A program made the translations under genes and the position numbers. A DNA stretch of 64,000 nt from Anaerolineae bacterium (GTDB lineage: Bacteria; Chloroflexota; Anaerolineae; DUEN01): NCBI GenBank assembly GCA_025060615.1, contig JANXBS010000010.1, positions 62,001 through 126,000 of the forward strand, written 5' to 3'. Below, piece by piece: positions 1 to 11,088 of the stretch. The stretch's first letter is position 1. The number at the start of each line of letters is the position of its first letter. The notes below the pieces were generated by a model that ran no database searches, had not been told where the DNA came from, and saw nothing but the letters and a program-made list of their open reading frames with translations.

Positions 1-795
1 CTTTTTCAGGGTAACTTAGGTCGCTCTATGCTCAACCGCCACCTCGTGCGGGATGATCTCGCAAAGTATTTCCCCGCCACCCTAGAGTTGGTGCTGGTCT
101 CCATGGCCTTTGCGATTGTGATCGGCATCCCAGCCGCTGTGCTGGCCGCAGTATATCGCGATCGCTGGCCGGATCAGGTGAGCCGGATCATCGCTCTCTC
201 TGGCATCAGTATGCCCCTGTTTTGGCTGGCAATTATGCTCCAATTGATCCTGGGTCAGTGGTTGCGCCTGTTGCCTATCAGCGGCCGCTTTGACCCAAGG
301 CTCCCTTATCCCAGGGAGATCACCGGGCTGCTGTTGCTTGACACCTTGCTTCTCGGCGATCTCAAGAGCTTCTTCGTCGCCCTGAAGTACATCTTCTTGC
401 CGGCGTTGACTCAGTCTCTCATCGCCCTGGCCTTGATTATGCGCCTGCTGCGGGCCGACATCCTGGAGGTTCTGCAGAAGGACTTCGTGCGAATGGCGCG
501 AGCGAACGGCATCCCTGAGCGTATCATCCTGTTCAAGTATGTGCTCAAAAACGGCCTAATCGCCACGGTATCTATGCTGGGTTTTTTGTTTGGATTTCTG
601 CTGGGCGGCTCCGTCATGGTGGAGACGGTCTTCAACTGGCCGGGGTTAGGGCTATACTCGATGAACTCGGCCCTCAGTCTGGACTTTCAGCCGATCATGG
701 GGATCACGCTATTTGTCGGGCTGCTCTTCACATTGGTGAATCTGGCCACCGACCTGATGTATGGCGTGTTGGACCCACGTATCCGCTATGGATAG
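1..795 (+). CDS. ABC importer permease, DppB/OppB type (5' end outside window)
   Basis: Inner-membrane permease subunit of a peptide/opine/nickel-type ABC importer. The frame is open from base 1 and the residues before the first ATG (position 28) still fit the family (a GNLGRS motif followed by a PATLEL segment), so the gene begins left of the window. Family members have about 300-330 residues and only about 264 are visible. Several hydrophobic segments are seen, and the EAA-like cytoplasmic loop that contacts the ATPases lies near the middle (RMARANGIPE), followed by the GGSVMVETVF and PGLG motifs typical of DppB. It is followed after 51 bp by the second permease and then both ATPases, so it is the first visible gene of a dpp-type operon. 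The substrate cannot be read from sequence; the downstream HyuA/DUF917 genes suggest a cyclic amide or a peptide-like compound (inference). Confidence 0.93.
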   Translation, partial: LFQGNLGRSMLNRHLVRDDLAKYFPATLELVLVSMAFAIVIGIPAAVLAAVYRDRWPDQVSRIIALSGISMPLFWLAIMLQLILGQWLRLLPISGRFDPRLPYPREITGLLLLDTLLLGDLKSFFVALKYIFLPALTQSLIALALIMRLLRADILEVLQKDFVRMARANGIPERIILFKYVLKNGLIATVSMLGFLFGFLLGGSVMVETVFNWPGLGLYSMNSALSLDFQPIMGITLFVGLLFTLVNLATDLMYGVLDPRIRYG

Positions 796-846: not shown

Positions 847-1770
847 ATGAGTGAGGCCATTGCTTTCCGAGTTGACCTAAGAGGATGGTGGCAACGGTGG
901 CGCCACGAGAACGAGAGCCTAATCGAGGACTGGCGGCGCGCGCTCTACCGCTTCCGTCAGAGCACTCTCTCGATGGTGGGGTTGGGGATCGTCCTGTTCC
1001 TCTTCTTGGTCGCGCTGACCGGTCCTTGGTGGGTGCCGTACCCAGAGGATGCCACAGGGACCCTGCACATCGAGGAACGGTTTCAGCCTCCTAGCCTTCG
1101 CCACCCTTTCGGCACCGATGAGGTCGGGCGTGACATCTTCACCCGCACCGTGATAGGCACCCGCATCTCGTTTCAAGTAGGAGTGATCATCCTGGTAGTT
1201 GCCATCAGCATTGGGGTGACCCTGGGCGGGCTGGCCGGCTATCTGGGGGGATGGATCAGCGAGCTTATCATGCGCCTAGCAGACATCATGCTCACATTCC
1301 CCGGCATCTTCCTGGCCCTCAGCATCACCGCCGCGCTGGGGCCGGGGGTGACCAATGCCATGCTGGCCTTGTCCATTACCTGGTGGCCCGGCTACGCGCG
1401 GTTAGTCCAGGCTCAGGTGATGTCCGCGCGGGAGGATGACTATGTGCAGGCTGCTAAGGCAATGGGAGCCAGCCATCTACGCATCATTTTTCGTCACATC
1501 TTGCCCAACATTATTCCCGCTATCATCGTGAAGGCCTCGATGGACATCGGCTTTGCTATCCTGAGCTTGGCCGCCCTGGGCTTCATCGGCGTGGGAGCTC
1601 AGCCGCCGGTCCCCGAGTGGGGAGCCATGATCTCCAAGGGGCGCGGCTATCTGCCCCACTATTGGTGGTACTCCACCTTCCCTGGGTTGGCCATGTTCTT
1701 GACCGTGTTCGGCTTCAACTTGCTCGGCGATGGGCTGCGCGATGTAGTGGACCCGCGCTCGCGACGCTAA
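847..1770 (+). CDS. ABC importer permease, DppC/OppC type
   Basis: Second membrane subunit of the importer, 307 residues, normal length for DppC. An N-terminal OppC_N-type segment holds the first membrane helix (about residues 40-65), followed by the family motif HPFGTDEVGRD (near residue 88) and a binding-protein-dependent permease domain with five further helices. The EAA loop reads QAAKAMGASHLRIIFRHILP and the C-terminus has the usual GDGLRDVVDPR ending. It pairs with the upstream DppB-type subunit as a heterodimer. The gene shares strand and spacing with its neighbours and is probably co-transcribed. A second, truncated DppC-like gene occurs near 51 kb and may be compared with it. Confidence 0.95.
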   Translation: MSEAIAFRVDLRGWWQRWRHENESLIEDWRRALYRFRQSTLSMVGLGIVLFLFLVALTGPWWVPYPEDATGTLHIEERFQPPSLRHPFGTDEVGRDIFTRTVIGTRISFQVGVIILVVAISIGVTLGGLAGYLGGWISELIMRLADIMLTFPGIFLALSITAALGPGVTNAMLALSITWWPGYARLVQAQVMSAREDDYVQAAKAMGASHLRIIFRHILPNIIPAIIVKASMDIGFAILSLAALGFIGVGAQPPVPEWGAMISKGRGYLPHYWWYSTFPGLAMFLTVFGFNLLGDGLRDVVDPRSRR

Positions 1771-1843: not shown

Positions 1844-2875
1844 ATGGACGAGGATGTGCTAGTCTCGATTCGAGATTTGCATGTCAATTTCCACACTTTC
1901 GACGGCGTGGTGCGAGCGTTAGCCGGCGTGAACCTCGAGCTACGCCGTGGCGATGTGTTGGGGCTGGTGGGTGAGACGGGATGTGGCAAGACGATGACGG
2001 CGCTGAGCATCCCTCACCTGATCCCTTGCCCACCAGGTGAGATCGCCCAAGGTGAGGTCCTGTTTGACGGCAAGAATGTGCTGGCGATGAGCAACGGGGA
2101 GCTGCGCCGGTTGCGAGCCACCCGGATGGCGATGATCTTCCAAGACCCGACCACCAACTTGAACCCGGTCTTCACCATCGAAGAGCAAATGGTGGATGCC
2201 ATCCTTAGCAAAGCGGAGGCTCCTGCCACGATGGCAATGGCCCCATTCGCCAAATGGCTCCCATCGAACCGCCAACGCCGGCGAGAGGCTCGCCGCATAG
2301 CCGTTGAGGCACTGCGCAGGGTAGGAATCCCCGACCCTGAGCGTCGCATCGCTAGCTATCCCCACGAGTTCAGCGGCGGGATGAGGCAGCGAGTGTTGAT
2401 CGCCATGGCGATCGCAGGCCGGCCGGAGCTGCTCATCGCCGACGAGCCCACTACCGCCCTTGACGTCTCCATTCAGGCCCAAATCTTGAGGCTGATCCAG
2501 GACTTGGTGCGTGAGCTGGACCTGACGGTACTGTTGATCACTCATAACCTGGGGGTTGTCGCCAAGGTCTGCAACAAAGCGGCCGTAATGTATGCCGGCC
2601 GAGTGGTAGAGCAGGGGCCAGTGCGCAGTATCTTCAAAGAGCCGTGTCATCCGTACACTCGTGGCCTGTTACGGGCCGTGCCGAGGCGCGACAAGGGGAA
2701 GGGTGAGCTACAGGGGATCGCTGGCTCCATCCCCAGCCTAATAAACCCGCCGGTCGGATGTCGTTTCCATCCCCGCTGTCCTCATGCTATGCCACAATGC
2801 GCCTTTGAGCCGCCTCCCGTGATGCGGCTCGTGGGGCACGCGCATTATGTGGCGTGTCATCTGTACGATATATGA
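1844..2875 (+). CDS. ABC importer ATP-binding protein, DppD/OppD type
   Basis: Cytoplasmic ATPase subunit, 343 residues. Walker A is GETGCGKT (near residue 44), the Q-loop FQDPTTNLNP follows, then the signature FSGGMRQRV, Walker B LLIADEPTTALD and the H-loop ITHNLGVV. The C-terminal oligopeptide/dipeptide domain carries a Cys cluster of the CRFHPRCPHA type (CX5C...C) that in this family is reported to bind an iron-sulfur cluster or metal. The ATG at 1844 gives the usual N-terminus of the family. It works with the DppF-type protein encoded 34 bp downstream, forming an ATPase heterodimer under the two permeases. Confidence 0.95.
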   Translation: MDEDVLVSIRDLHVNFHTFDGVVRALAGVNLELRRGDVLGLVGETGCGKTMTALSIPHLIPCPPGEIAQGEVLFDGKNVLAMSNGELRRLRATRMAMIFQDPTTNLNPVFTIEEQMVDAILSKAEAPATMAMAPFAKWLPSNRQRRREARRIAVEALRRVGIPDPERRIASYPHEFSGGMRQRVLIAMAIAGRPELLIADEPTTALDVSIQAQILRLIQDLVRELDLTVLLITHNLGVVAKVCNKAAVMYAGRVVEQGPVRSIFKEPCHPYTRGLLRAVPRRDKGKGELQGIAGSIPSLINPPVGCRFHPRCPHAMPQCAFEPPPVMRLVGHAHYVACHLYDI

Positions 2876-2909: not shown

Positions 2910-3908
2910 ATGAATGGCCCCCTTCTGCAGGTCCGCCAACTCACTAAGTATTTCCCTGTGCGCGGCGGCCTCTTCCGTCGCCATGTGGACGATATTCGCG
3001 CCGTGGATGGCGTGGACTTGGAGATTCACGCAGGGGAATCCTTTGGCCTGGTCGGTGAGTCAGGCTCGGGCAAGACTACCCTGGGCAAGCTGATCCTCCG
3101 TCTCATCGAGCCCACCTCTGGCCAGGTCCTCTTCGAAGGGCGAGATGTGCTCCGGCTGTCCGAGCGGGAGATGCGCAGCTACCGCGCTCATATGCAGATT
3201 GTCTTCCAAGACCCCTTCTCCTCACTGAATCCCCGCATGAAGGTCAAGCAGATCATCGCTGAGCCGATGATCATCCATCGCCTGGCGCGCGGTGCCGAGC
3301 TGGAAGCGCGCGTGCGGGAGCTGGCACGGCTGGTGGGGCTGACCGAGGATCACCTACACCGCTATCCCCATGAGTTTAGCGGCGGCCAACGCCAGCGCAT
3401 TGGCATCGCCCGCGCCCTGGCCTTGCAGCCCAAGCTCATCATCCTGGACGAGCCCACTTCTGCCCTCGATGTCTCCGTCCAGGCGCAGATTCTTAACCTG
3501 CTGTTGGACTTGCAACGGCGTCTAAACCTGACTTATCTGATGATCTCGCACGACCTAGGCGTGATCCGCTACATGTGCGACCGGGTAGCCCTGATGTACT
3601 TAGGGCGCATCGTCGAGCTGGGGACCGTGGATCAGATCTTCAACGCGCCCCGGCACCCGTATACACAGGCCTTGCTGTCGGCTATGCCAGAGCCTGACCC
3701 GGATCATCAGGGGGAACAAATCGTCCTACAGGGGGAGATCTCCACGCTGGCCAGTCCACACCAGGGCTGCCCCTTTGCGCCGCGCTGCCCGGCCCCGAAG
3801 GTTCGCGCCTGCACGGAACACATGCCCCCCCTTCTGGACATCGGCCGGGGCCACCAGGTGGCCTGTCACCTGGTGACGCTCGGCAGCTCGCCATTGGTTA
3901 CTCGCTGA
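2910..3908 (+). CDS. ABC importer ATP-binding protein, DppF/OppF type
   Basis: Second cytoplasmic ATPase of the importer, 332 residues. Walker [10 protein letters not shown]-loop [12 protein letters not shown], signature [15 protein letters not shown], Walker [13 protein letters not shown] and H-loop ISHDLGVI are all intact. The C-terminal oligopeptide-transporter domain ends with a [10 protein letters not shown] Cys motif. The N-terminal phrase [12 protein letters not shown] is typical of DppF. No substrate-binding protein gene is seen in the visible part of the operon; it may lie left of the window. Confidence 0.95.
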
Positions 3909-3955: not shown

Positions 3956-5497
3956 ATGAGGATCGGCATAGACGTAGGTGGCACCAATACCGATGCGGTG
4001 CTCATGAAAGGTATGACGGTAGTAGATGCGGTGAAGACGCCTACTACCCCTGACGTCAGCACGGGCATCACCACGGCCCTTCGGAACCTGCTCGCGAAGA
4101 CGCGCGTGGACCCGGCGGCGATTACCGCAGTGATGATCGGGACGACTCATTTCACCAACGCCGTGATCGAGCGCAAACACTTAATGCCCACGGCCGCAGT
4201 ACGGCTGGGGCTGCCAGCGACAGCTGGGCTGCCCCCCATGGTAGATTGGCCGCCTGACCTGCGCGAGGCGATTGGCAATCACTGGTATCTGGTCCACGGC
4301 GGCCACGAGTTCGATGGCCGTCGCATCTCCAAGCCGGATGAACGAGAGCTGCGCCAGGTGGCCCAGCAGATCAAGGACAAAGGTATCCGGGCGATCGCCG
4401 TCTCCAGCGTCTTCTCCCCGGTGAACCCGGAGGACGAGAACTGGGCCGCTGCGATCCTCCAGGATGAGATCCCCGACGCCCACATCACCCGTTCTCACGA
4501 GATCGGGCGTATCGGGTTGCTGGAGCGGGAGAACGCGGCGATCATGAACGCCTGTCTCCAGGACCTGGCTCGGCGCATCATCGCGTCCTTTCGACAGGCT
4601 CTGGTCGAGATGAACATCCAGGCGCCGTTCTACTTGAGCCAGAACGATGGCACCTTAATGAGCGCCGAATTCGCTGAGAAGTACCCCGTCTTCACTTTCG
4701 CTTCCGGGCCTACCAACAGCATGCGCGGCGCGGCCTTCCTCTCCGGGGTGAAGGAGGCTATGGTGGTAGACCTGGGCGGCACCACCTCCGACGTAGGGAT
4801 GCTCATCCATGGCTTCCCCCGGGAAGCCTCGGTGGCGGTGGAGATCGGCGGCGTGCGCACCAACTTCCGTATGCCTGACGTCTACTCCTTCGGCCTGGGC
4901 GGCGGCAGCTTGGTGAGGCGCGACCCTCTCCAGATCGGCCCTCAGAGTGTGGGCTATGAGTTGACGACCAAGGCTTGGGTTTTCGGCGGCGATGTGCTGA
5001 CAGCTACAGATATCGCTGTAGCAGGCGGGCTGGCGGATATCGGCGACCGCAGCGCGGTGCGCTCGCTGGACGGTAGCTTTGTGCGCGAGGCGTTGGACCT
5101 GATGCAGCAGATGGTAGACGCCGCTGTAGATCGCATGAAGACAAGCGCCGAGCCGATCCCAGTGATCCTGGTGGGCGGAGGGACCATCCTGGTCTCACGT
5201 CCTGTGGCCGGTGCCTCCGAGATCATCCGGCCTGAGCATTACGCTGTAGCTAACGCGATCGGCGCAGCCATCGCCCAAGTGGGCGCGGAGACCGATCGGA
5301 TTTTCTCCCTGGCGACCATGTCGCGAGAGGAGGCCCTGAATCAGGCCAAAGAGGAGGCGATCGCCAAAGCGCTGGCAGCCGGCGCGGCGAAGGAGACCAT
5401 CCAGATTGTGGACGTGGAGGAAGTGCCGCTCACCTATCTTCCCAGCAACGCCACCCGTATCCGGGTCAAAGCGGTAGGCGATCTTCAACTAGATTGA
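3956..5497 (+). CDS. Hydantoinase/oxoprolinase family protein (HyuA-like)
   Basis: A 513-residue protein of the hydantoinase A / oxoprolinase family, whose members hydrolyse cyclic amides with ATP. The N-terminus starts with the actin-like phosphate loop IGIDVGGTNTDAV, and a second nucleotide loop, VVDLGGTTSDVGML, lies near residue 270, as in Hydant_A_N followed by Hydantoinase_A. GLGGGS near residue 315 and ILVGGGTILV near residue 403 are further family signatures. It is shorter than 5-oxoprolinases or HyuA of about 690 residues, but this short form is typical when DUF917 genes sit next to it, as here. A strong ribosome site (AAGGAGG, 3943-3949) fixes the ATG. The actual substrate is not known; acetone-carboxylase-like or hydantoinase-like activity would be guesses. 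Confidence 0.9.
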   Translation: MRIGIDVGGTNTDAVLMKGMTVVDAVKTPTTPDVSTGITTALRNLLAKTRVDPAAITAVMIGTTHFTNAVIERKHLMPTAAVRLGLPATAGLPPMVDWPPDLREAIGNHWYLVHGGHEFDGRRISKPDERELRQVAQQIKDKGIRAIAVSSVFSPVNPEDENWAAAILQDEIPDAHITRSHEIGRIGLLERENAAIMNACLQDLARRIIASFRQALVEMNIQAPFYLSQNDGTLMSAEFAEKYPVFTFASGPTNSMRGAAFLSGVKEAMVVDLGGTTSDVGMLIHGFPREASVAVEIGGVRTNFRMPDVYSFGLGGGSLVRRDPLQIGPQSVGYELTTKAWVFGGDVLTATDIAVAGGLADIGDRSAVRSLDGSFVREALDLMQQMVDAAVDRMKTSAEPIPVILVGGGTILVSRPVAGASEIIRPEHYAVANAIGAAIAQVGAETDRIFSLATMSREEALNQAKEEAIAKALAAGAAKETIQIVDVEEVPLTYLPSNATRIRVKAVGDLQLD

Positions 5498-5555
5498 GGG
5501 GTTTCATCTGTTGCACGTTCAAACGTTCGACAGTACACGTATAAACTCCTGTTCC

Positions 5556-6686
5556 ATGTGGATGTTGAGCGCCGAGGACTTGGAGTCCATCGCTATTGGA
5601 GCGGGGATCTTGGGCGCTGGCGGAGGCGGCAACCCGTACCTGGGTAAGCTCCGCATGCGCTGTCTGCTGGAAGAAGGACGTTACGTTTCCATCATCCTGC
5701 CTGAGGCGTTACCAGACGACGCGCTGGTGGTCACTATAGGCGGCATCGGTGCCCCGACAGTGGGCGTGGAGAAGCTCGAACGGGGTGATGAGGAAGTGCG
5801 CGCGCTGCAAGCCCTCGAGGCATTTCTGGGCCGGCGAGCTGATGCCCTGATCTCGGTGGAGATCGGTGGCGGGAACTCGGTGGCCCCGCTGATTGCGGCC
5901 GCGCAGGTCGGCCTGCCTGTCGTAGACGCCGACGGCATGGGTCGCGCCTTCCCCGAGATCCCCATGACCTCGTTTTTCATCTACGGCGTGGATCCCACCC
6001 CGGCCGTGTTGTGCGATGAGAAGGGCAACGTCGTTCTATTCCCTCGGGCGCAGGACGCCCGCACGCTCGAACGCCTGGCGCGTTCGGTTACCATCGCGAT
6101 GGGGTGCACGGCCACCTTTGCCATGGCCCCCATGACGGGCGCCCAGGTGAAGCGCACCGCGGTGTGGCACACCCTCTCCCTGACCAAAGCCATCGGCGAC
6201 CAGGTGCAGGCCGCGCGACGGCAGGGGCGGGACCCCGTTCAGAGCATTCTGGAGCTGAGCGACGGCCAGGTGATCTTTCGCGGCAAGATCACTGATGTGG
6301 CCCGGCGTACCACGGGAGGTTTCGCCCGCGGCACGGCCACCATTGCCGGAGTGGAATCGTACGCCGGCCAGGAGATGGTCATCGAGTTTCAGAACGAGAA
6401 CTTGATCGCTCAAGTGCGGCAGAGAGATCAGGGAACAGGGGCACAGCAGAGCGACGGCGAGATCCGGGCTACTGTCCCTGACTTGATCTGCATCGTGGAC
6501 GACGACACGGGCGAGCCGATCACCACCGAACTTCTGCGTTACGGATTTCGCGTGACGGTACTGGGCATACCCTGCTCAGACAAACTGCGCACGCCGGAAG
6601 CGCTGGCAGTGGTCGGCCCCCAGGCGTTTGGCTATCCGGTGGAGTATCATCCCCTGCCTAAGCGGAAGAGAGGAGGCATCGCATGA
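5556..6686 (+). CDS. DUF917 family protein, copy 1
   Basis: Member of the DUF917 family (CoxX-like), of unknown reaction, usually encoded beside hydantoinase-like proteins. The frame is open back to a TTG at 5511, but the ATG at 5556 makes the N-terminus align residue for residue with copy 2 (both reach their LG-x-GGGG motif, GAGGGGNPYLGKL here, at the same residue number), so 5556 is preferred although the ribosome site is weak. Shared blocks include GAPTVGVEKL, DGMGRAFPEIPM, RSVTIAMGCTA, FRGKITDV and RYGFRVTVLGIPC. The Asp-Gly-Met-Gly-Arg and Met-Gly-Cys-Thr blocks are the best candidates for an active site (inference). Its stop codon overlaps the start of copy 2 (ATGA). Confidence 0.88.
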   Translation: MWMLSAEDLESIAIGAGILGAGGGGNPYLGKLRMRCLLEEGRYVSIILPEALPDDALVVTIGGIGAPTVGVEKLERGDEEVRALQALEAFLGRRADALISVEIGGGNSVAPLIAAAQVGLPVVDADGMGRAFPEIPMTSFFIYGVDPTPAVLCDEKGNVVLFPRAQDARTLERLARSVTIAMGCTATFAMAPMTGAQVKRTAVWHTLSLTKAIGDQVQAARRQGRDPVQSILELSDGQVIFRGKITDVARRTTGGFARGTATIAGVESYAGQEMVIEFQNENLIAQVRQRDQGTGAQQSDGEIRATVPDLICIVDDDTGEPITTELLRYGFRVTVLGIPCSDKLRTPEALAVVGPQAFGYPVEYHPLPKRKRGGIA

Positions 6687-7762
6687 GGAAGCTGGACGTC
6701 CAGAACGTGGAAGACCTGGCCCTGGGAGCCGCCGTACTGGGCACCGGCGGTGGGGGCGATCCCTACATTGGCAAGCTCATGGCGATCCATGCCATCGAGA
6801 GATATGGCCCGGTGACCTTGCTCTCCCTGGATGAAATCGGCGATGACGATCTGATCGTGCCTGCTGCTATGATGGGAGCTCCCACCGTCATGGTGGAGAA
6901 GCTGCCGCAGGGGGATGAGGCGATCAAGGCCTTTCAAGCTCTGGAGGACTACCTCGGCAGGAAGATCAACGCCACCATGTCCATTGAGGCGGGAGGGCTC
7001 AACTCGACCATCCCGATCACGGTAGCTGCTCGGCTGGGGTTGCCGATGGTAGACTGCGACGGCATGGGCCGCGCCTTCCCTGAGATCCCCATGGTGACCC
7101 ACACGCTGTACGGCGTCTCGGCCACGCCGTTCGCCATGGCGGACGAGAAGGGGAACAGCGCGATCCTGAACACCATTGACAATCACTGGACAGAGCGGCT
7201 GGCTCGCAGCATCACGATTGACATGGGGTGCACAGCCCTCATCGCCTGCTACGCGGCGACCGGCCGCCAGCTCAAGGAATGCAGCGTGCCGGGCACCATC
7301 ACGTTAGCGGAACGGATTGGGCGCACCATTCGAGAGGCGCGTCAAGGCAACCGCGATGTGATCGCGGCCGTGCAGGAGGTCACTGGCGGTTTTGAGATCT
7401 TCCGAGGCAAGATCACGGACGTGCAGCGGCGGACGGAGACCGGCTTTGCGCGCGGAGAGGCCACTTTCGAGGGGATGGATGGATACGCCGGCCAGCGCAT
7501 GAAGCTCCATTTTCAGAACGAGCACCTGGTGGCGGCAGTGGATGGCCAGATCGTCGTCACCGTGCCTGATCTGATCGCTGTTCTGGACGCTGAGACCGGC
7601 CAGCCCATCACCACGGAGAGCCTGCGTTACGGCTTTCGGGTCGTGATCTTAGGCATCCCCTGTCACGAGAAATGGCGGACGCCGGCCGGCCTGGCTCTGG
7701 TGGGGCCGCGCTACTTCGGGTATGACACAGATTACGTGCCGGTAGAAGTGCGTTACCGATAA
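6683..7762 (+). CDS. DUF917 family protein, copy 2
   Basis: 359 residues, paralogue of the gene just upstream and translationally coupled to it by an ATGA overlap. It keeps all shared blocks: GTGGGGDPYIGKL at the N-terminus, GAPTVMVEKLPQGDEA, DCDGMGRAFPEIPM, ITIDMGCTALIA, FRGKITDVQRRTETGFARG and RYGFRVVILGIPC. Two tandem, clearly diverged copies suggest a heteromeric enzyme together with the HyuA-like protein, comparable to multi-subunit hydantoinases (inference). It is the last gene of the operon; a 110 bp gap with a short inverted repeat (CCATGCC/GGCATGG near 7815-7845) separates it from the MFS gene. Confidence 0.9.
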   Translation: MRKLDVQNVEDLALGAAVLGTGGGGDPYIGKLMAIHAIERYGPVTLLSLDEIGDDDLIVPAAMMGAPTVMVEKLPQGDEAIKAFQALEDYLGRKINATMSIEAGGLNSTIPITVAARLGLPMVDCDGMGRAFPEIPMVTHTLYGVSATPFAMADEKGNSAILNTIDNHWTERLARSITIDMGCTALIACYAATGRQLKECSVPGTITLAERIGRTIREARQGNRDVIAAVQEVTGGFEIFRGKITDVQRRTETGFARGEATFEGMDGYAGQRMKLHFQNEHLVAAVDGQIVVTVPDLIAVLDAETGQPITTESLRYGFRVVILGIPCHEKWRTPAGLALVGPRYFGYDTDYVPVEVRYR

Positions 7763-7871: not shown

Positions 7872-9185
7872 GTGAAGTTCCCCGGCCTCTTGGCTGTGAT
7901 TTTAACGCGTCTCCGGTTTCCGCCTTTTCCCAAACTGCGATGGTCTTTCCCTGCTGCTCTTTTCGAAAAGGAAGCCCTGACTCCACCACGTGAGCAACAT
8001 AACCAGCGCTACTTATACTGGGACATCGCCTGGTTTGGTGTGACATCCGGCATCGCCCTCAACTTTCTGGCGGTCTATGCTGTGCGTCTCGGCGCGACCG
8101 AAATCGAGGTGGGCGCGCTCACCTCAGCGCCAGCACTGATTTCGATCTTCTGGCTGATCCCAGCTGCGCAAATTGTGGCCCGCCAGCGCCATATTATGAA
8201 GCTTCTGCTATGGACTCTTTTCACCCACCGCCTGGGCTATCTGCTGATAGCGCTGTTGCCATGGGGGGTTCCAATTAGTTGGGTAGTGCCCGGCCTGGTT
8301 GCACTGTCAGCACTGCAGGCATTCCCACTCGGCCTCGCCAACATTGGTTTTTCTGCGATGTTACCTGAGGCCATTTCCAAGGAACGGCTGGGGAGAGTGA
8401 TCAGCGTCCGCAACGCGCTGATCGGAGCTACTTCCACGCTGACCGTTTTGGGCTGTGGACCCATCCTGGCGGCATTGCCCGCCCCGCTGAACTATCAAGT
8501 GTTGTTTCTAATCGCCTTCCTGGCCAGTATGGCCAGCTTATACACGGTTGCACAGCTTGATATCCCTCCGAAGAGGCGGGCTCCATCGGCCGTGCAGGGG
8601 TTGGCAGATCTGGTAGAAGGATTTCAACACTTCTGGGCCGATCGCCGATTCGTATTCTTCACGCTGGCCTCGTTCGTGCTGCACTGGGGCATATACATGG
8701 CCGCGCCGTTATTTCCGGTATACTGGGTGCATGTACTGGGGGCGTCAGACTCATTCATCAGCCTGATCGTCACACTGGGTAACGGCTCCTCCGTACTGGG
8801 AGCTTTAGCCATGGACCGTGTGCTGCGGCAATGGGGCAATCGACGTGTGGTGGGCTTCAGCATGCTGGGGCTAGCACTGATCCCGATCCTGACGGCAATG
8901 ACTCAAACCCTGCCGCCCTTGCTCGTCATCTCTTTGCTAGGAGGGCTCTTCGCGGCCGGATTGAACGTCTGCCTGTTCAATGCGCTGATCCAGGTCGCGC
9001 CTGATGCTGACCGGGAACGTTTTATTGCCATCTTCTCGGTGCTGGCGAATGTGGCTGTGTTCGCCGCGCCGCTGTCCGGCTCTTGGCTGGCAGAGATCGT
9101 GGGGATCGCGCCGGCCTTCTTCATCTCTGGAGCGATCCGCATCCTGGCCGGCGCGATGTTCTTATGGCATCGGAGCGCGTATTGA
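7872..9185 (+). CDS. MFS transporter
   Basis: 437-residue polytopic membrane protein of the major facilitator superfamily with about 11-12 hydrophobic segments. It starts at a GTG with a GAGGAG ribosome site 6 bp upstream. The first segment of about 40 residues is basic and atypical; the first clear helix follows YLYWDIAWFGVTSGIALNF. A loop of the SKERLGRVISVRNAL type after helix 4 and a second-half motif MDRVLRQWGNRRVVG correspond to MFS cytoplasmic loops. Substrate unknown. It shares strand with the operon upstream but has its own spacing. It is convergent with the dioxygenase gene, with 61 bp between the stops. Confidence 0.88.
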   Translation: MKFPGLLAVILTRLRFPPFPKLRWSFPAALFEKEALTPPREQHNQRYLYWDIAWFGVTSGIALNFLAVYAVRLGATEIEVGALTSAPALISIFWLIPAAQIVARQRHIMKLLLWTLFTHRLGYLLIALLPWGVPISWVVPGLVALSALQAFPLGLANIGFSAMLPEAISKERLGRVISVRNALIGATSTLTVLGCGPILAALPAPLNYQVLFLIAFLASMASLYTVAQLDIPPKRRAPSAVQGLADLVEGFQHFWADRRFVFFTLASFVLHWGIYMAAPLFPVYWVHVLGASDSFISLIVTLGNGSSVLGALAMDRVLRQWGNRRVVGFSMLGLALIPILTAMTQTLPPLLVISLLGGLFAAGLNVCLFNALIQVAPDADRERFIAIFSVLANVAVFAAPLSGSWLAEIVGIAPAFFISGAIRILAGAMFLWHRSAY

Positions 9186-9246: not shown

Positions 9247-10074
9247 TCACCCGCTACGCGCAAGGGAGCTAAACTCCGTCCCGCAGGGGCCCGCTGGGCC
9301 GTTATCCTCGCGGCGGACGATCTCCCCGCGTATCGTGTATAGCGGATTGTAGTAGTTGCCGATCCGGAGGCTCGACACGCCTACGTAATGGCAGATGAAA
9401 GACCGCCGCCAGCGATCCCTTGACCGGTTGGGAGGCGAGCCGTGAATCAAGCTCCCGTTGAAGAAGAGCACATCGCCAGCTTCCATGGGTACCGTGATAG
9501 GAGCTAGGCCCTCGGGGACATCCACCTCTTCCTTTGTGAAGTAGATGGCCGGATCCGCCTGGTGTGGACAGAGGATTCCCAGATGGTTGGTCTTGGGGAC
9601 GACTATCAGCCCTCCGTTCTCCTCATCTGCCGGTTCTAACGCGACCCAGGCAGCAATACACGTACCGGGCTCCACCCGCAGGTAGAAGTTATCCTGGTGC
9701 AAGGACTGCCCACGTGCGCCCGGCGGCTTGAAGTAGAACATGCTTTGCGCTGCCAGCGGCTCCTCACCGAACAACTCGGTCAGTATGCTGATGATCCTGG
9801 GATGCAGCATGTAGCGTTTTGCCGTCTCGTTCACGCGATGTGGGTGCATAATGCGCGGGTATTGCTTCAAGACGTCGCCGCCGGACTCCGCCGCCGAGAG
9901 CGGGTAGTAGTTGAGCTCTGGAATGGGCGCACTGGCATGCATTGCTGTCATCGTTTCTATCAGTTCCTGAACCTCACTCGGGCTCAGCAGGCCAGGGATA
10001 AGCAGATACCCCTCCCGCTCGAACTGCTCGCGCTCGCTAATTGAGAGCTCTCTAGTCAACACCTGCGTTGCCAT
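9247..10074 (-). CDS. Phytanoyl-CoA dioxygenase (PhyH) family protein
   Basis: 275-residue Fe(II)/2-oxoglutarate-dependent oxygenase of the PhyH family. The facial triad is visible as H126-x-D128 (SLHQDNF) and the distal His211 (LIHGSPPN), with Arg residues just behind it that would bind 2-oxoglutarate. The double-stranded beta-helix core is indicated by AAWVALEPADEENGGL and GDVLFFNGSLIHG. The ATG at 10074 has a GGAGGAAG ribosome site. It is divergent from an AraC-type regulator with only 114 bp between starts, so that regulator is the likely controller. Bacterial members hydroxylate diverse small molecules; the substrate cannot be told here. Confidence 0.9.
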   Translation of the reverse strand: MATQVLTRELSISEREQFEREGYLLIPGLLSPSEVQELIETMTAMHASAPIPELNYYPLSAAESGGDVLKQYPRIMHPHRVNETAKRYMLHPRIISILTELFGEEPLAAQSMFYFKPPGARGQSLHQDNFYLRVEPGTCIAAWVALEPADEENGGLIVVPKTNHLGILCPHQADPAIYFTKEEVDVPEGLAPITVPMEAGDVLFFNGSLIHGSPPNRSRDRWRRSFICHYVGVSSLRIGNYYNPLYTIRGEIVRREDNGPAGPCGTEFSSLARSG

Positions 10075-10188: not shown

Positions 10189-11088
10189 ATGCACAATTAT
10201 GCTGTCGAGCAGGCACAGCCAGATCAGGACACGCCGTCTCCACCGCCGGGGATCCTCGTCTCCGGTCACTTCCGCGAGCCATTCGGCTACCATGTACGCC
10301 GACCCGCCGGCACACGCGATTGGCTGGTCACTTACACGTTGGCCGGTGAGGGGCGCTTCCGGTTAGGCGGCCTGACATATCCATGCGTGGCTGGCGACCT
10401 GATCATCCTGGCTCCCGGCGTGCCTCATGACTACGCTACCGCCCGTCCTGGAGAGATCTGGGAATTCTTCTGGGCGCACTTTCTACCGCGCCCACACTGG
10501 ATGCGCTGGCTGCGCCTGCCAGAACTTGCACCTGGGCTATACAGCCTTTCCATTGGGGATCAGATGACCCAGCGGCGGATTTGCCGGGCATTTGAGCGGC
10601 TGTTGCAGGATAACCAAGGCCTAGGAACGCTGCGAGAGGAGCTGGCGGCCAACGCGCTAGAGGAGATCATCCTCTTAGTTGCCCAGTACCATTTCAGAAT
10701 GGCCAGCCGTGCCTTGGACCCTCGTGTAGAGGCTGTGCTGCATCAGTTATCTCAACGGTTCAGCGAGCCGCTTACCGTGTCCAACCTGGCAAGCCTCGTC
10801 TCCCTCTCCCCCTCGCGCCTCTCCCATCTGTTCAAGGAGCAGGTAGGAGATTCGATTATGGAGATGCTGCGGAAGCTACGCCTGCGCCAAGCCGCACGTC
10901 TGCTCGAGTTCACCTCGCGGCAGGTGAGCGAGATCGCGCAGGATGTGGGCTTCCGTTCGCCTTTCTACTTTTCACGGCAATTCAAAGCCTACTACGGAAT
11001 GAGCCCTACGGCTTATCGAGGGCAAGTCCAACGGCGCAATCCCACTCCTACAGATCGAGCTCACGAGGCGGCTGAAGGGGAAGCTTAG
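10189..11088 (+). CDS. AraC family transcriptional regulator
   Basis: 299 residues. The N-terminal half is an AraC-type cupin ligand-binding domain (GRFRLGGLTYPCVAGDLII, then PHDYATA), the C-terminal 100 residues are the two helix-turn-helix units: LTVSNLASLVSLSPSRLSHLF and ISEIA-like QVSEIAQDVGFRSPFYFSRQFK, ending with the conserved YYGMSPTAYR. Divergent to the PhyH-type gene, a common arrangement in which the regulator activates the oxygenase gene in response to a small ligand. The ATG at 10189 has a weak AGGAATT site upstream. Confidence 0.92.
   Translation: MHNYAVEQAQPDQDTPSPPPGILVSGHFREPFGYHVRRPAGTRDWLVTYTLAGEGRFRLGGLTYPCVAGDLIILAPGVPHDYATARPGEIWEFFWAHFLPRPHWMRWLRLPELAPGLYSLSIGDQMTQRRICRAFERLLQDNQGLGTLREELAANALEEIILLVAQYHFRMASRALDPRVEAVLHQLSQRFSEPLTVSNLASLVSLSPSRLSHLFKEQVGDSIMEMLRKLRLRQAARLLEFTSRQVSEIAQDVGFRSPFYFSRQFKAYYGMSPTAYRGQVQRRNPTPTDRAHEAAEGEA

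What the first reader, a model, noticed from the sequence alone, without database searches (positions are those of the whole stretch)
3956..7762. HyuA-like gene with a translationally coupled DUF917 pair behind a peptide-type importer
The two DUF917 proteins are clearly homologous but different, overlap by ATGA, and follow a HyuA-like ATPase and a complete set of importer ATPases and permeases. This suggests a three-subunit enzyme acting on an imported cyclic amide or related compound. The reaction of DUF917 proteins is not known.
Basis: partly seen in the sequence, partly recalled or inferred. Interest (0 to 1): 0.5.

Follow-up and report, generated by a model that had tools for sequence, protein, structure and literature searches.

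The report
ATP-driven cyclic amide opener, paired DUF917
Beside a peptide-type importer lie a short ATP-using protein and two sister DUF917 proteins that most likely open imported ring-shaped amides such as cyclic dipeptides; relatives manage with one DUF917 protein, so the pair is not a fixed three-part machine.

Summary
In detail: HyuA-like 3956-5497, DUF917-alpha to 6686 and DUF917-beta 6683-7762 (52% identical, ATGA overlap) follow OppBCDF; a family-5 solute-binding protein lies just left of the window. (1) Two DUF917 branches are named by NCBIfam as thiohydantoin and S-methyl-thiohydantoin desulfurases. In nine loci these lie beside a urocanate hydratase, without HyuA, and lack residues (E102, N107, D126) that the window proteins have; the window proteins belong to another, largely HyuA-linked branch. 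(2) No obligatory trio: 14 of 16 tested single-DUF917 genomes of the phylum have it beside a short HyuA; alpha-type and beta-type proteins each occur alone; other clusters hold up to five; the overlap is absent in 10 relatives. (3) HyuA has the caprolactamase-A fold and phosphate motifs but lacks GxxPGP and the C-terminal domain. (4) Some relatives, including three 73-74% identical, lie beside cyclodipeptide oxidases; others beside dipeptidases or racemases. Best reading: an ATP-dependent cyclic-amide hydrolase, probably for cyclic dipeptides (hydantoins second), with DUF917 in the place of HyuB. Substrate, activity and complex formation are inferred, not shown.

The parts
1..795 (+). OppB-type permease of the importer (gene begins 219 nt left of the window)
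   Evidence: BPD_transp_1 123 bits; whole gene at L082 9782-10795
847..1770 (+). OppC-type permease
   Evidence: BPD_transp_1, OppC_N
1844..2875 (+). OppD-type importer ATPase
   Evidence: ABC_tran, oligo_HPY
2910..3908 (+). OppF-type importer ATPase
   Evidence: ABC_tran, oligo_HPY
3956..5497 (+). short HyuA-like ATPase: DxGGTxTD and DxGGT motifs kept, GxxPGP motif replaced, no C-terminal domain match
   Evidence: model pLDDT 91.4 aligned to caprolactamase A 6yra, Z 31.0, 500 residues
5562..6686 (+). DUF917-alpha (start unsettled: TTG 5511, ATG 5556 or ATG 5562)
   Evidence: S-Me-THD_N 199 bits, S-Me-THD_C 234 bits; alpha clade, SH-aLRT 98
6683..7762 (+). DUF917-beta, ATGA overlap with alpha
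   Evidence: S-Me-THD_N 208 bits, S-Me-THD_C 261 bits; beta clade, SH-aLRT 95; model pLDDT 94.4 matches 2o3i at Z 41.5

Best explanation
The operon encodes import and ATP-dependent ring opening of a cyclic amide, most probably cyclic dipeptides (2,5-diketopiperazines). The short HyuA would phosphorylate the carbonyl oxygen of the lactim form of the ring, as is proposed for caprolactamase A and 5-oxoprolinase A. A DUF917 protein would then hydrolyse this activated imidate, the job done by HyuB/CapB in the known enzymes. The chemistry is a small step from that of the S-methyl-thiohydantoin desulfurases in the same family: an S-methyl isothiourea and an O-phospho-lactim are both imidate carbons carrying a leaving group. 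alpha and beta would be alternative or complementary hydrolase subunits served by one ATPase, widening the substrate range. Shown here: gene order, family, fold, the split in residue pattern, neighbourhood linkage in relatives, and that many genomes have the short HyuA with one DUF917 only. Inferred: activity, substrate, any HyuA-DUF917 contact, the role of having two.
For: HyuA model aligns to CapA over 500 residues (Z 31.0) and to N-methylhydantoinase 9h03 (Z 22.2). The P1 motif is kept in all 34 aligned rows and P2 in 32 (the two distant rows read DxGGS). A short HyuA adjoins DUF917 in loci of bacteria and archaea. Link to cyclic dipeptides: cyclodipeptide-oxidase genes (Nitroreductase plus DUF6092; one fused protein in L045) in 9 of 80 loci, and DUF6092 alone at a contig end in a tenth. 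In 400 genomes of the phylum DUF917 occurs in 9 of 11 with DUF6092 against 30 of 389 without (Fisher p 1.5e-8), and 7 of the 10 over-cut-off DUF6092 genes lie within about 2 kb of a DUF917 gene. An M19 dipeptidase gene follows HyuA in L075, L081 and L099, and in two overlapping fragments in L076; an isoaspartyl peptidase and M19 follow in L126. Hydantoin-racemase matches in 11 of 80 loci. DUF917 enrichment in cyclodipeptide-oxidase clusters is already in print (PMC11055893, one section read), and PMC6061476 (passages) suggests that many genes annotated as 5-oxoprolinase may be cyclic-dipeptide hydrolases.
Against: The own genome has no DUF6092 match, so the link is by relatives only. Only 3 of the 7 co-located oxidase contigs also carry a short HyuA; of the 9 genomes with both DUF6092 and DUF917, G053, G175 and G184 show no short HyuA at all (in L033, the same contig as G175's by length, DUF917 lies at the contig end). 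In L029, L033 and L045 a full-length HyuA and HyuB follow the oxidase, and in L027 the start of one at the contig end, so the oxidase may serve that enzyme. NCS1 cytosine/allantoin-type permeases in the 12 Firmicute and Methanomethylicales loci point at least as well to hydantoins. In five of these 12 loci (and in L115, L120, L126) a second DUF917 has its own HyuA, which speaks against one shared ATPase as a general rule. Monomethylamine methyltransferase genes stand beside L062. OsmC and a cysteine-synthase homologue stand beside L119. The GxxPGP adenosine motif is absent.
Confidence: 0.5

Rival explanations
1. The same ATP-dependent ring opening, but on five-membered hydantoin-type rings (hydantoin, N-methylhydantoin, allantoin-like purine breakdown products) rather than cyclic dipeptides.
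For: NCS1 permease genes in the 12 Firmicute/Methanomethylicales loci and annotated cytosine permeases beside HyuA-DUF917 in L115, L119, L120, L121, L122, L124; PucR-family regulators annotated beside L120, L121, L129; racemase matches in 11 of 80 loci; HyuA aligns to N-methylhydantoinase 9h03; methylamine methyltransferase beside L062 would fit an N-methyl substrate.
Against: The window and many Chloroflexota loci use an Opp-type importer (oligo_HPY, SBP_bac_5), typical of peptides; the oxidase and dipeptidase neighbours act on cyclic or linear dipeptides.
Confidence: 0.25
2. One reading: an obligatory three-subunit enzyme HyuA-alpha-beta in which both DUF917 proteins are needed in one complex.
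For: 19 of 80 loci hold one alpha and one beta; ATGA overlap here.
Against: Short HyuA with a sole DUF917 in 14 of 16 single-DUF917 genomes tested and in four Bacillus-type genomes; sole partners in both clades; one to five alpha/beta genes per locus; overlap not conserved; the near-invariant polar residues are kept in both, so neither looks like a dead subunit.
Confidence: 0.1
3. Thiohydantoin or S-methyl-thiohydantoin desulfurases of ergothioneine-type catabolism.
For: The only NCBIfam matches of both proteins at E 0.01 are NF058532 and NF058529; L119 has OsmC and a cysteine-synthase homologue beside HyuA-DUF917.
Against: Scores 83-118 bits against cut-offs 440 and 450. All nine desulfurase loci examined hold a urocanate hydratase and no short-HyuA match at E 1e-4, six of them being only 4 kb long; none of the ten window proteins scanned is a urocanate hydratase. 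Those nine proteins carry Q or an alignment gap, S/P and T/V/A where the window proteins carry E102, N107 and D126.
Confidence: 0.08
4. An ATP-dependent carboxylase (acetone/acetophenone carboxylase style) or another non-hydrolytic reaction.
For: HyuA aligns equally well to acetophenone carboxylase 5l9w (Z 31.4) and nearly so to acetone carboxylase 5svc (Z 28.1).
Against: No Hydantoinase_B-type subunit among the ten window proteins scanned; amide-processing neighbours in relatives.
Confidence: 0.07

Closest known systems
Caprolactamase CapAB / 5-oxoprolinase / N-methylhydantoinase (HyuA-HyuB)
   Same: HyuA-type ATPase of the same fold, residues 6-614 of CapA matched; DxGGTxTD and DxGGT motifs
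   Different: No GxxPGP motif, no match to the C-terminal domain PF19278 that the long HyuA of L045 has; the neighbouring gene is DUF917, not HyuB/CapB
Thiohydantoin desulfurase NF058529 and S-methyl thiohydantoin desulfurase NF058532
   Same: Same protein family; D124, R130, N279, E280, D296 shared
   Different: 25-30% identical to beta in six compared; lack E102/N107/D126; lie beside urocanate hydratase, no short HyuA found
PDB 2o3i, Chromobacterium violaceum CV_3147, structural-genomics DUF917 protein
   Same: Whole-length fold match, Z 41.5, rmsd 2.1, 336 residues, 27% identity
   Different: No function in the PDB title
DUF917 genes of cyclodipeptide-oxidase clusters (PMC11055893)
   Same: DUF917 with peptide ABC importers, racemases, AroM, peptidases; Chloroflexota among the phyla rich in the oxidase
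   Different: The section read names neither HyuA as partner nor DUF917 pairs or arrays

Membership tests
DUF917 / S-Me-THD-like (PF06032 + PF20906) | Both Pfam domains above cut-off | tested here: met
   199-261 bits against cut-off 27 in alpha and beta
Thiohydantoin desulfurase NF058529 / S-methyl thiohydantoin desulfurase NF058532 | Curated whole-protein cut-off (440 / 450 bits) | tested here: not met
   alpha 86.0 / 83.2 bits, beta 106.9 / 117.6 bits
Thiohydantoin desulfurase NF058529 / S-methyl thiohydantoin desulfurase NF058532 | Residue pattern seen in proteins over the cut-off (Q or gap, S/P, T/V/A at beta 102, 107, 126) and urocanate hydratase nearby (my own criterion, from nine loci) | tested here: not met
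   Window has E102, N107, D126 and no urocanate hydratase among the ten proteins scanned; nine of nine comparison loci have the other pattern and a urocanate hydratase
HyuA/CapA ATPase subunit | Hydant_A_N and Hydantoinase_A domains, CapA-like fold | tested here: met
   147.9 and 102.1 bits; Z 31.0 to 6yra
HyuA/CapA ATPase subunit | P1 DxGGTxTD and P2 DxGGT motifs (as given in PMC8453981, passages) | tested here: met
   DVGGTNTD and DLGGT in the window
HyuA/CapA ATPase subunit | GxxPGP adenosine motif | tested here: not met
   GYELTT in the window; GAVPGP in the two long HyuA rows of A2
HyuA/CapA ATPase subunit | C-terminal domain PF19278 | tested here: not met
   No match at E 0.001; 50.5 bits in the long HyuA of L045
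HyuAB/CapAB two-subunit hydrolase | HyuB/CapB partner with Asp-His-Asp-His metal site | tested here: not met
   No Hydantoinase_B among the ten window proteins scanned; no His among the invariant or nearly invariant DUF917 columns
HyuAB/CapAB two-subunit hydrolase | ATP- (and bicarbonate-) dependent ring opening | not testable with these tools
   Needs purified proteins
Cyclodipeptide-oxidase-linked clusters | CDOA and CDOB genes in the same cluster | tested here: not met
   No PF19585 in the own genome; both genes in 9 of 80 related loci, CDOB alone in a tenth

The most novel reading that the evidence does not exclude
HyuA-DUF917 is an undescribed class of ATP-dependent cyclic-dipeptide hydrolase, spread over bacteria and archaea, in which a stripped-down HyuA phosphorylates the ring and DUF917, recruited from the same stock as the thiohydantoin desulfurases, replaces HyuB. 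In Chloroflexota and relatives a single ATPase serves up to five interchangeable DUF917 hydrolases, each for other ring side chains.
Probability: 0.27. Interest if true: 0.7.

Novelty: new variant of a known kind. Interest (0 to 1): 0.5.

Why it matters
Cyclic dipeptides are widespread, and little is known of their degradation (PMC3852281, start of abstract in the listing). If right, the locus gives a widespread, testable pathway, an assignment for the HyuA-linked part of a large family still labelled DUF917 in many annotations, and a case of one activating ATPase shared by several hydrolases. It also warns against naming these proteins desulfurases from the new Pfam name.

Tried and rejected
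Obligatory pair: rejected by single-DUF917 genomes and the tree. Desulfurase membership: rejected by cut-offs and residue pattern. alpha as a dead subunit: rejected, since the near-invariant polar residues are kept in the groups alpha0, alpha1, alpha2, beta0 and betaX. ATGA coupling as a conserved trait: rejected. DUF917 as a HyuB by fold: Foldseek and its second look gave only 2o3i as a clear match; HyuB did not appear, which proves nothing. A strict link between the E/N/D/E pattern and HyuA adjacency: not found. Of 259 rows with a full pattern, 203 of 208 chained to a HyuA have E102-D126-E134, but so do 48 of 51 not chained (contig ends, gaps over 600 nt, and real cases such as L128 and the extra copies of L004 and L006); 14 of 273 rows with a gap were dropped there and looked at without position 72. 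So the pattern sets the nine desulfurases apart from most others; exceptions outside them are L129, L131, L105|18 and single changes at 134. Papers: DUF917 occurs in 4 held papers; two searches for a cyclic-dipeptide hydrolase of this kind found no paper that describes one, though I recall work on ATP-dependent HyuA/HyuB-type cyclic dipeptidases; the ergothioneine-catabolism paper that I recall was not held under the DOI I tried.

Limits: the 79 loci were chosen by likeness to beta, best 80 of 551 relatives. The Fisher test takes no account of kinship; 5 of the 11 DUF6092 genomes belong to one family. The 16 genomes are those of the 25 single-match genomes with E of 1.4e-34 or lower, less G053 (contig fragment); the other 9 were not tested. 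Adjacency is read from coordinates; five of the 14 (G395, G174, G010, G334, G379) were also read as loci.

Because second HyuA genes exist in several Firmicute loci I lowered the probability of the novel case from 0.3 to 0.27.
Full report
What is there. Own-genome sequence left of the window adds the family-5 solute-binding protein, so the cluster reads SBP-OppB-OppC-OppD-OppF-HyuA-DUF917alpha-DUF917beta, all on one strand. Downstream genes (MFS 7872-9185, PhyH-like 9247-10074 on the minus strand, AraC-type 10189-11088) look unrelated. The genome holds these two DUF917 genes and no other.

Family. DUF917 is now called S-Me-THD-like in Pfam. NCBIfam has two equivalogs, thiohydantoin desulfurase and S-methyl thiohydantoin desulfurase. 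The window proteins hit both with 83-118 bits, about a quarter of the cut-offs or less. For comparison I took six loci with proteins over the thiohydantoin cut-off (8 of 398 genomes of the class of L070's genome have one) and three plasmid loci over one of the two cut-offs (one over NF058529, two over NF058532). All nine carry a urocanate hydratase and none a short-HyuA match at E 1e-4, though six of the loci are only 4 kb long. The nine share D124, R130, N279, E280 and D296 with the window proteins; where beta has E102, N107 and D126 they have Q-S-T/V, or a gap with P-A (six of them aligned). In 249 of 273 DUF917 frames found in my loci the pattern at 102/107/126/134 is E-N-D-E. In the tree five desulfurases were set as outgroup and join by one long branch, support 100. 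The window proteins therefore sit in another branch than the desulfurases.

One or two or five. In 79 loci found by likeness to beta plus the own locus, one to five alpha/beta genes occur per locus. Loci with three or more of them show at most one short HyuA (over 45% identical). In the 12 Firmicute and Methanomethylicales loci beta has its own HyuA; six of these loci hold a second, distant DUF917, in five of them with a HyuA of its own. Four Bacillus-type genomes (G425, G427, G429, G430, with L069, L072, L075, L080) have one DUF917 in all. In 400 genomes of the window's phylum 39 carry DUF917, 25 of them once. Of 16 single-match genomes tested, 14 carry a short HyuA (47-60% identical) whose coordinates abut the DUF917 gene and 2 (G021, G040) none at E 1e-60. 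The tree gives an alpha clade (SH-aLRT 98) and a beta clade (95). Sole partners fall in alpha (L095, L096, L097), in beta (L069) and in neither (L098, L099). Haloferax mediterranei carries one alpha, one beta and a third type behind the same kind of importer. The tree is a quick search with SH-aLRT only, and long branches make some places unsure. Mesorhizobium has SBP, two permeases, two ATPases, HyuA and a single DUF917 in nearly the order of the window. So neither the pair nor its ATGA overlap is general.

HyuA. Its model (pLDDT 91.4) aligns with CapA over 500 residues, up to residue 614 of a 691-residue chain, Z 31.0, and with acetophenone carboxylase (31.4), acetone carboxylase (28.1) and N-methylhydantoinase (22.2). 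P1 and P2 phosphate motifs are intact; the place of the GxxPGP adenosine motif reads GYELTT; the C-terminal domain gives no match. PMC8453981 (passages) describes CapA as the phosphorylating subunit and CapB as the metal-bearing hydrolase, joined by a channel. Here the gene in the place of CapB is DUF917.

Neighbours. Nine of 80 loci have both cyclodipeptide-oxidase parts (L004, L006, L007, L009, L010, L027, L029, L033, L045) and L068 has CDOB only, at the contig end. L006 and L007 carry the two oxidase genes between OppF and HyuA, where the window goes straight from OppF to HyuA; L004 does so with an extra DUF917 in between. The beta of these three is 73-74% identical to the window's, and they have no alpha. 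In the genome sample 9 of 11 DUF6092 genomes carry DUF917 against 30 of 389 others. Seven of ten over-cut-off DUF6092 genes (G036, G175, G184, G193, G215, G233, G254) lie close to DUF917; G053 and G261 have it on another contig, G161 not at all. A short HyuA shares the contig in three of the seven (G193, G233, G254) and is found elsewhere in the genome in G036, G215 and G261. M19 dipeptidases, an isoaspartyl peptidase, AroM and racemases occur near HyuA-DUF917. Andreas and Giessen (PMC11055893, one section read) had already noted DUF917, racemases, AroM, peptide importers and peptidases in oxidase clusters; they call DUF917 uncharacterised and likely hydantoinases. In a Clostridioides difficile study (PMC12915319, one passage) a permease, a DUF917 and a hydantoinase gene with consecutive numbers (CDR20291_1615-1617) rise together in a table of regulated genes. 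Results that point elsewhere: NCS1 permeases in the 12 Firmicute/Methanomethylicales loci, a methylamine methyltransferase beside L062, OsmC and cysteine synthase beside L119, full-length HyuA with HyuB beside the oxidase in L029, L033 and L045.

Mechanism. I commit to ATP-dependent opening of a cyclic amide, with cyclic dipeptides first and hydantoins second. Phosphorylation by HyuA is inferred from fold and motifs. Hydrolysis by DUF917 is inferred from its place in the operon and from the desulfurases, which act on an imidate-like carbon with a sulfur leaving group (I know these reactions only from the NCBIfam names and from recall). The role of several DUF917 copies as interchangeable hydrolases for one ATPase is the boldest step; it rests on copy number, retained residues and sole partners from both clades, and the second HyuA genes in several loci count against it as a general rule.

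Noticed in passing
L062 6075-7442 and 7444-8826: Two tandem monomethylamine methyltransferase (MtmB) genes near HyuA-DUF917 in a Methanomethylicales genome read through without any in-frame stop, although MtmB is known (recalled) for an in-frame amber codon.
   Followed up: partly
L119 9001-12757: On a Streptomycetaceae plasmid HyuA-DUF917 is followed by OsmC, a cysteine-synthase homologue and a divergent DUF917: possible sulfur chemistry.
   Followed up: no
L105 (G184:C109): SBP, Opp importer, racemase, DUF917 with pattern E-N-D-D and cyclodipeptide oxidase in one cluster, in a genome without a short HyuA match: a DUF917 that may work without it.
   Followed up: partly
L131 5875-9508: Salinigranum cluster of DUF917, DUF1177, AroM and aminopeptidase behind an ABC importer; this DUF917 scores 251-262 bits to both desulfurase models, between the two branches.
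   Followed up: no
L045 6754-7647: Fused cyclodipeptide oxidase (Nitroreductase plus DUF6092 in one 297-aa protein) followed by full-length HyuA and HyuB.
   Followed up: partly
window 9247-10074 (-): PhyH-type dioxygenase gene divergent from an AraC-type regulator at 10189-11088.
   Followed up: no
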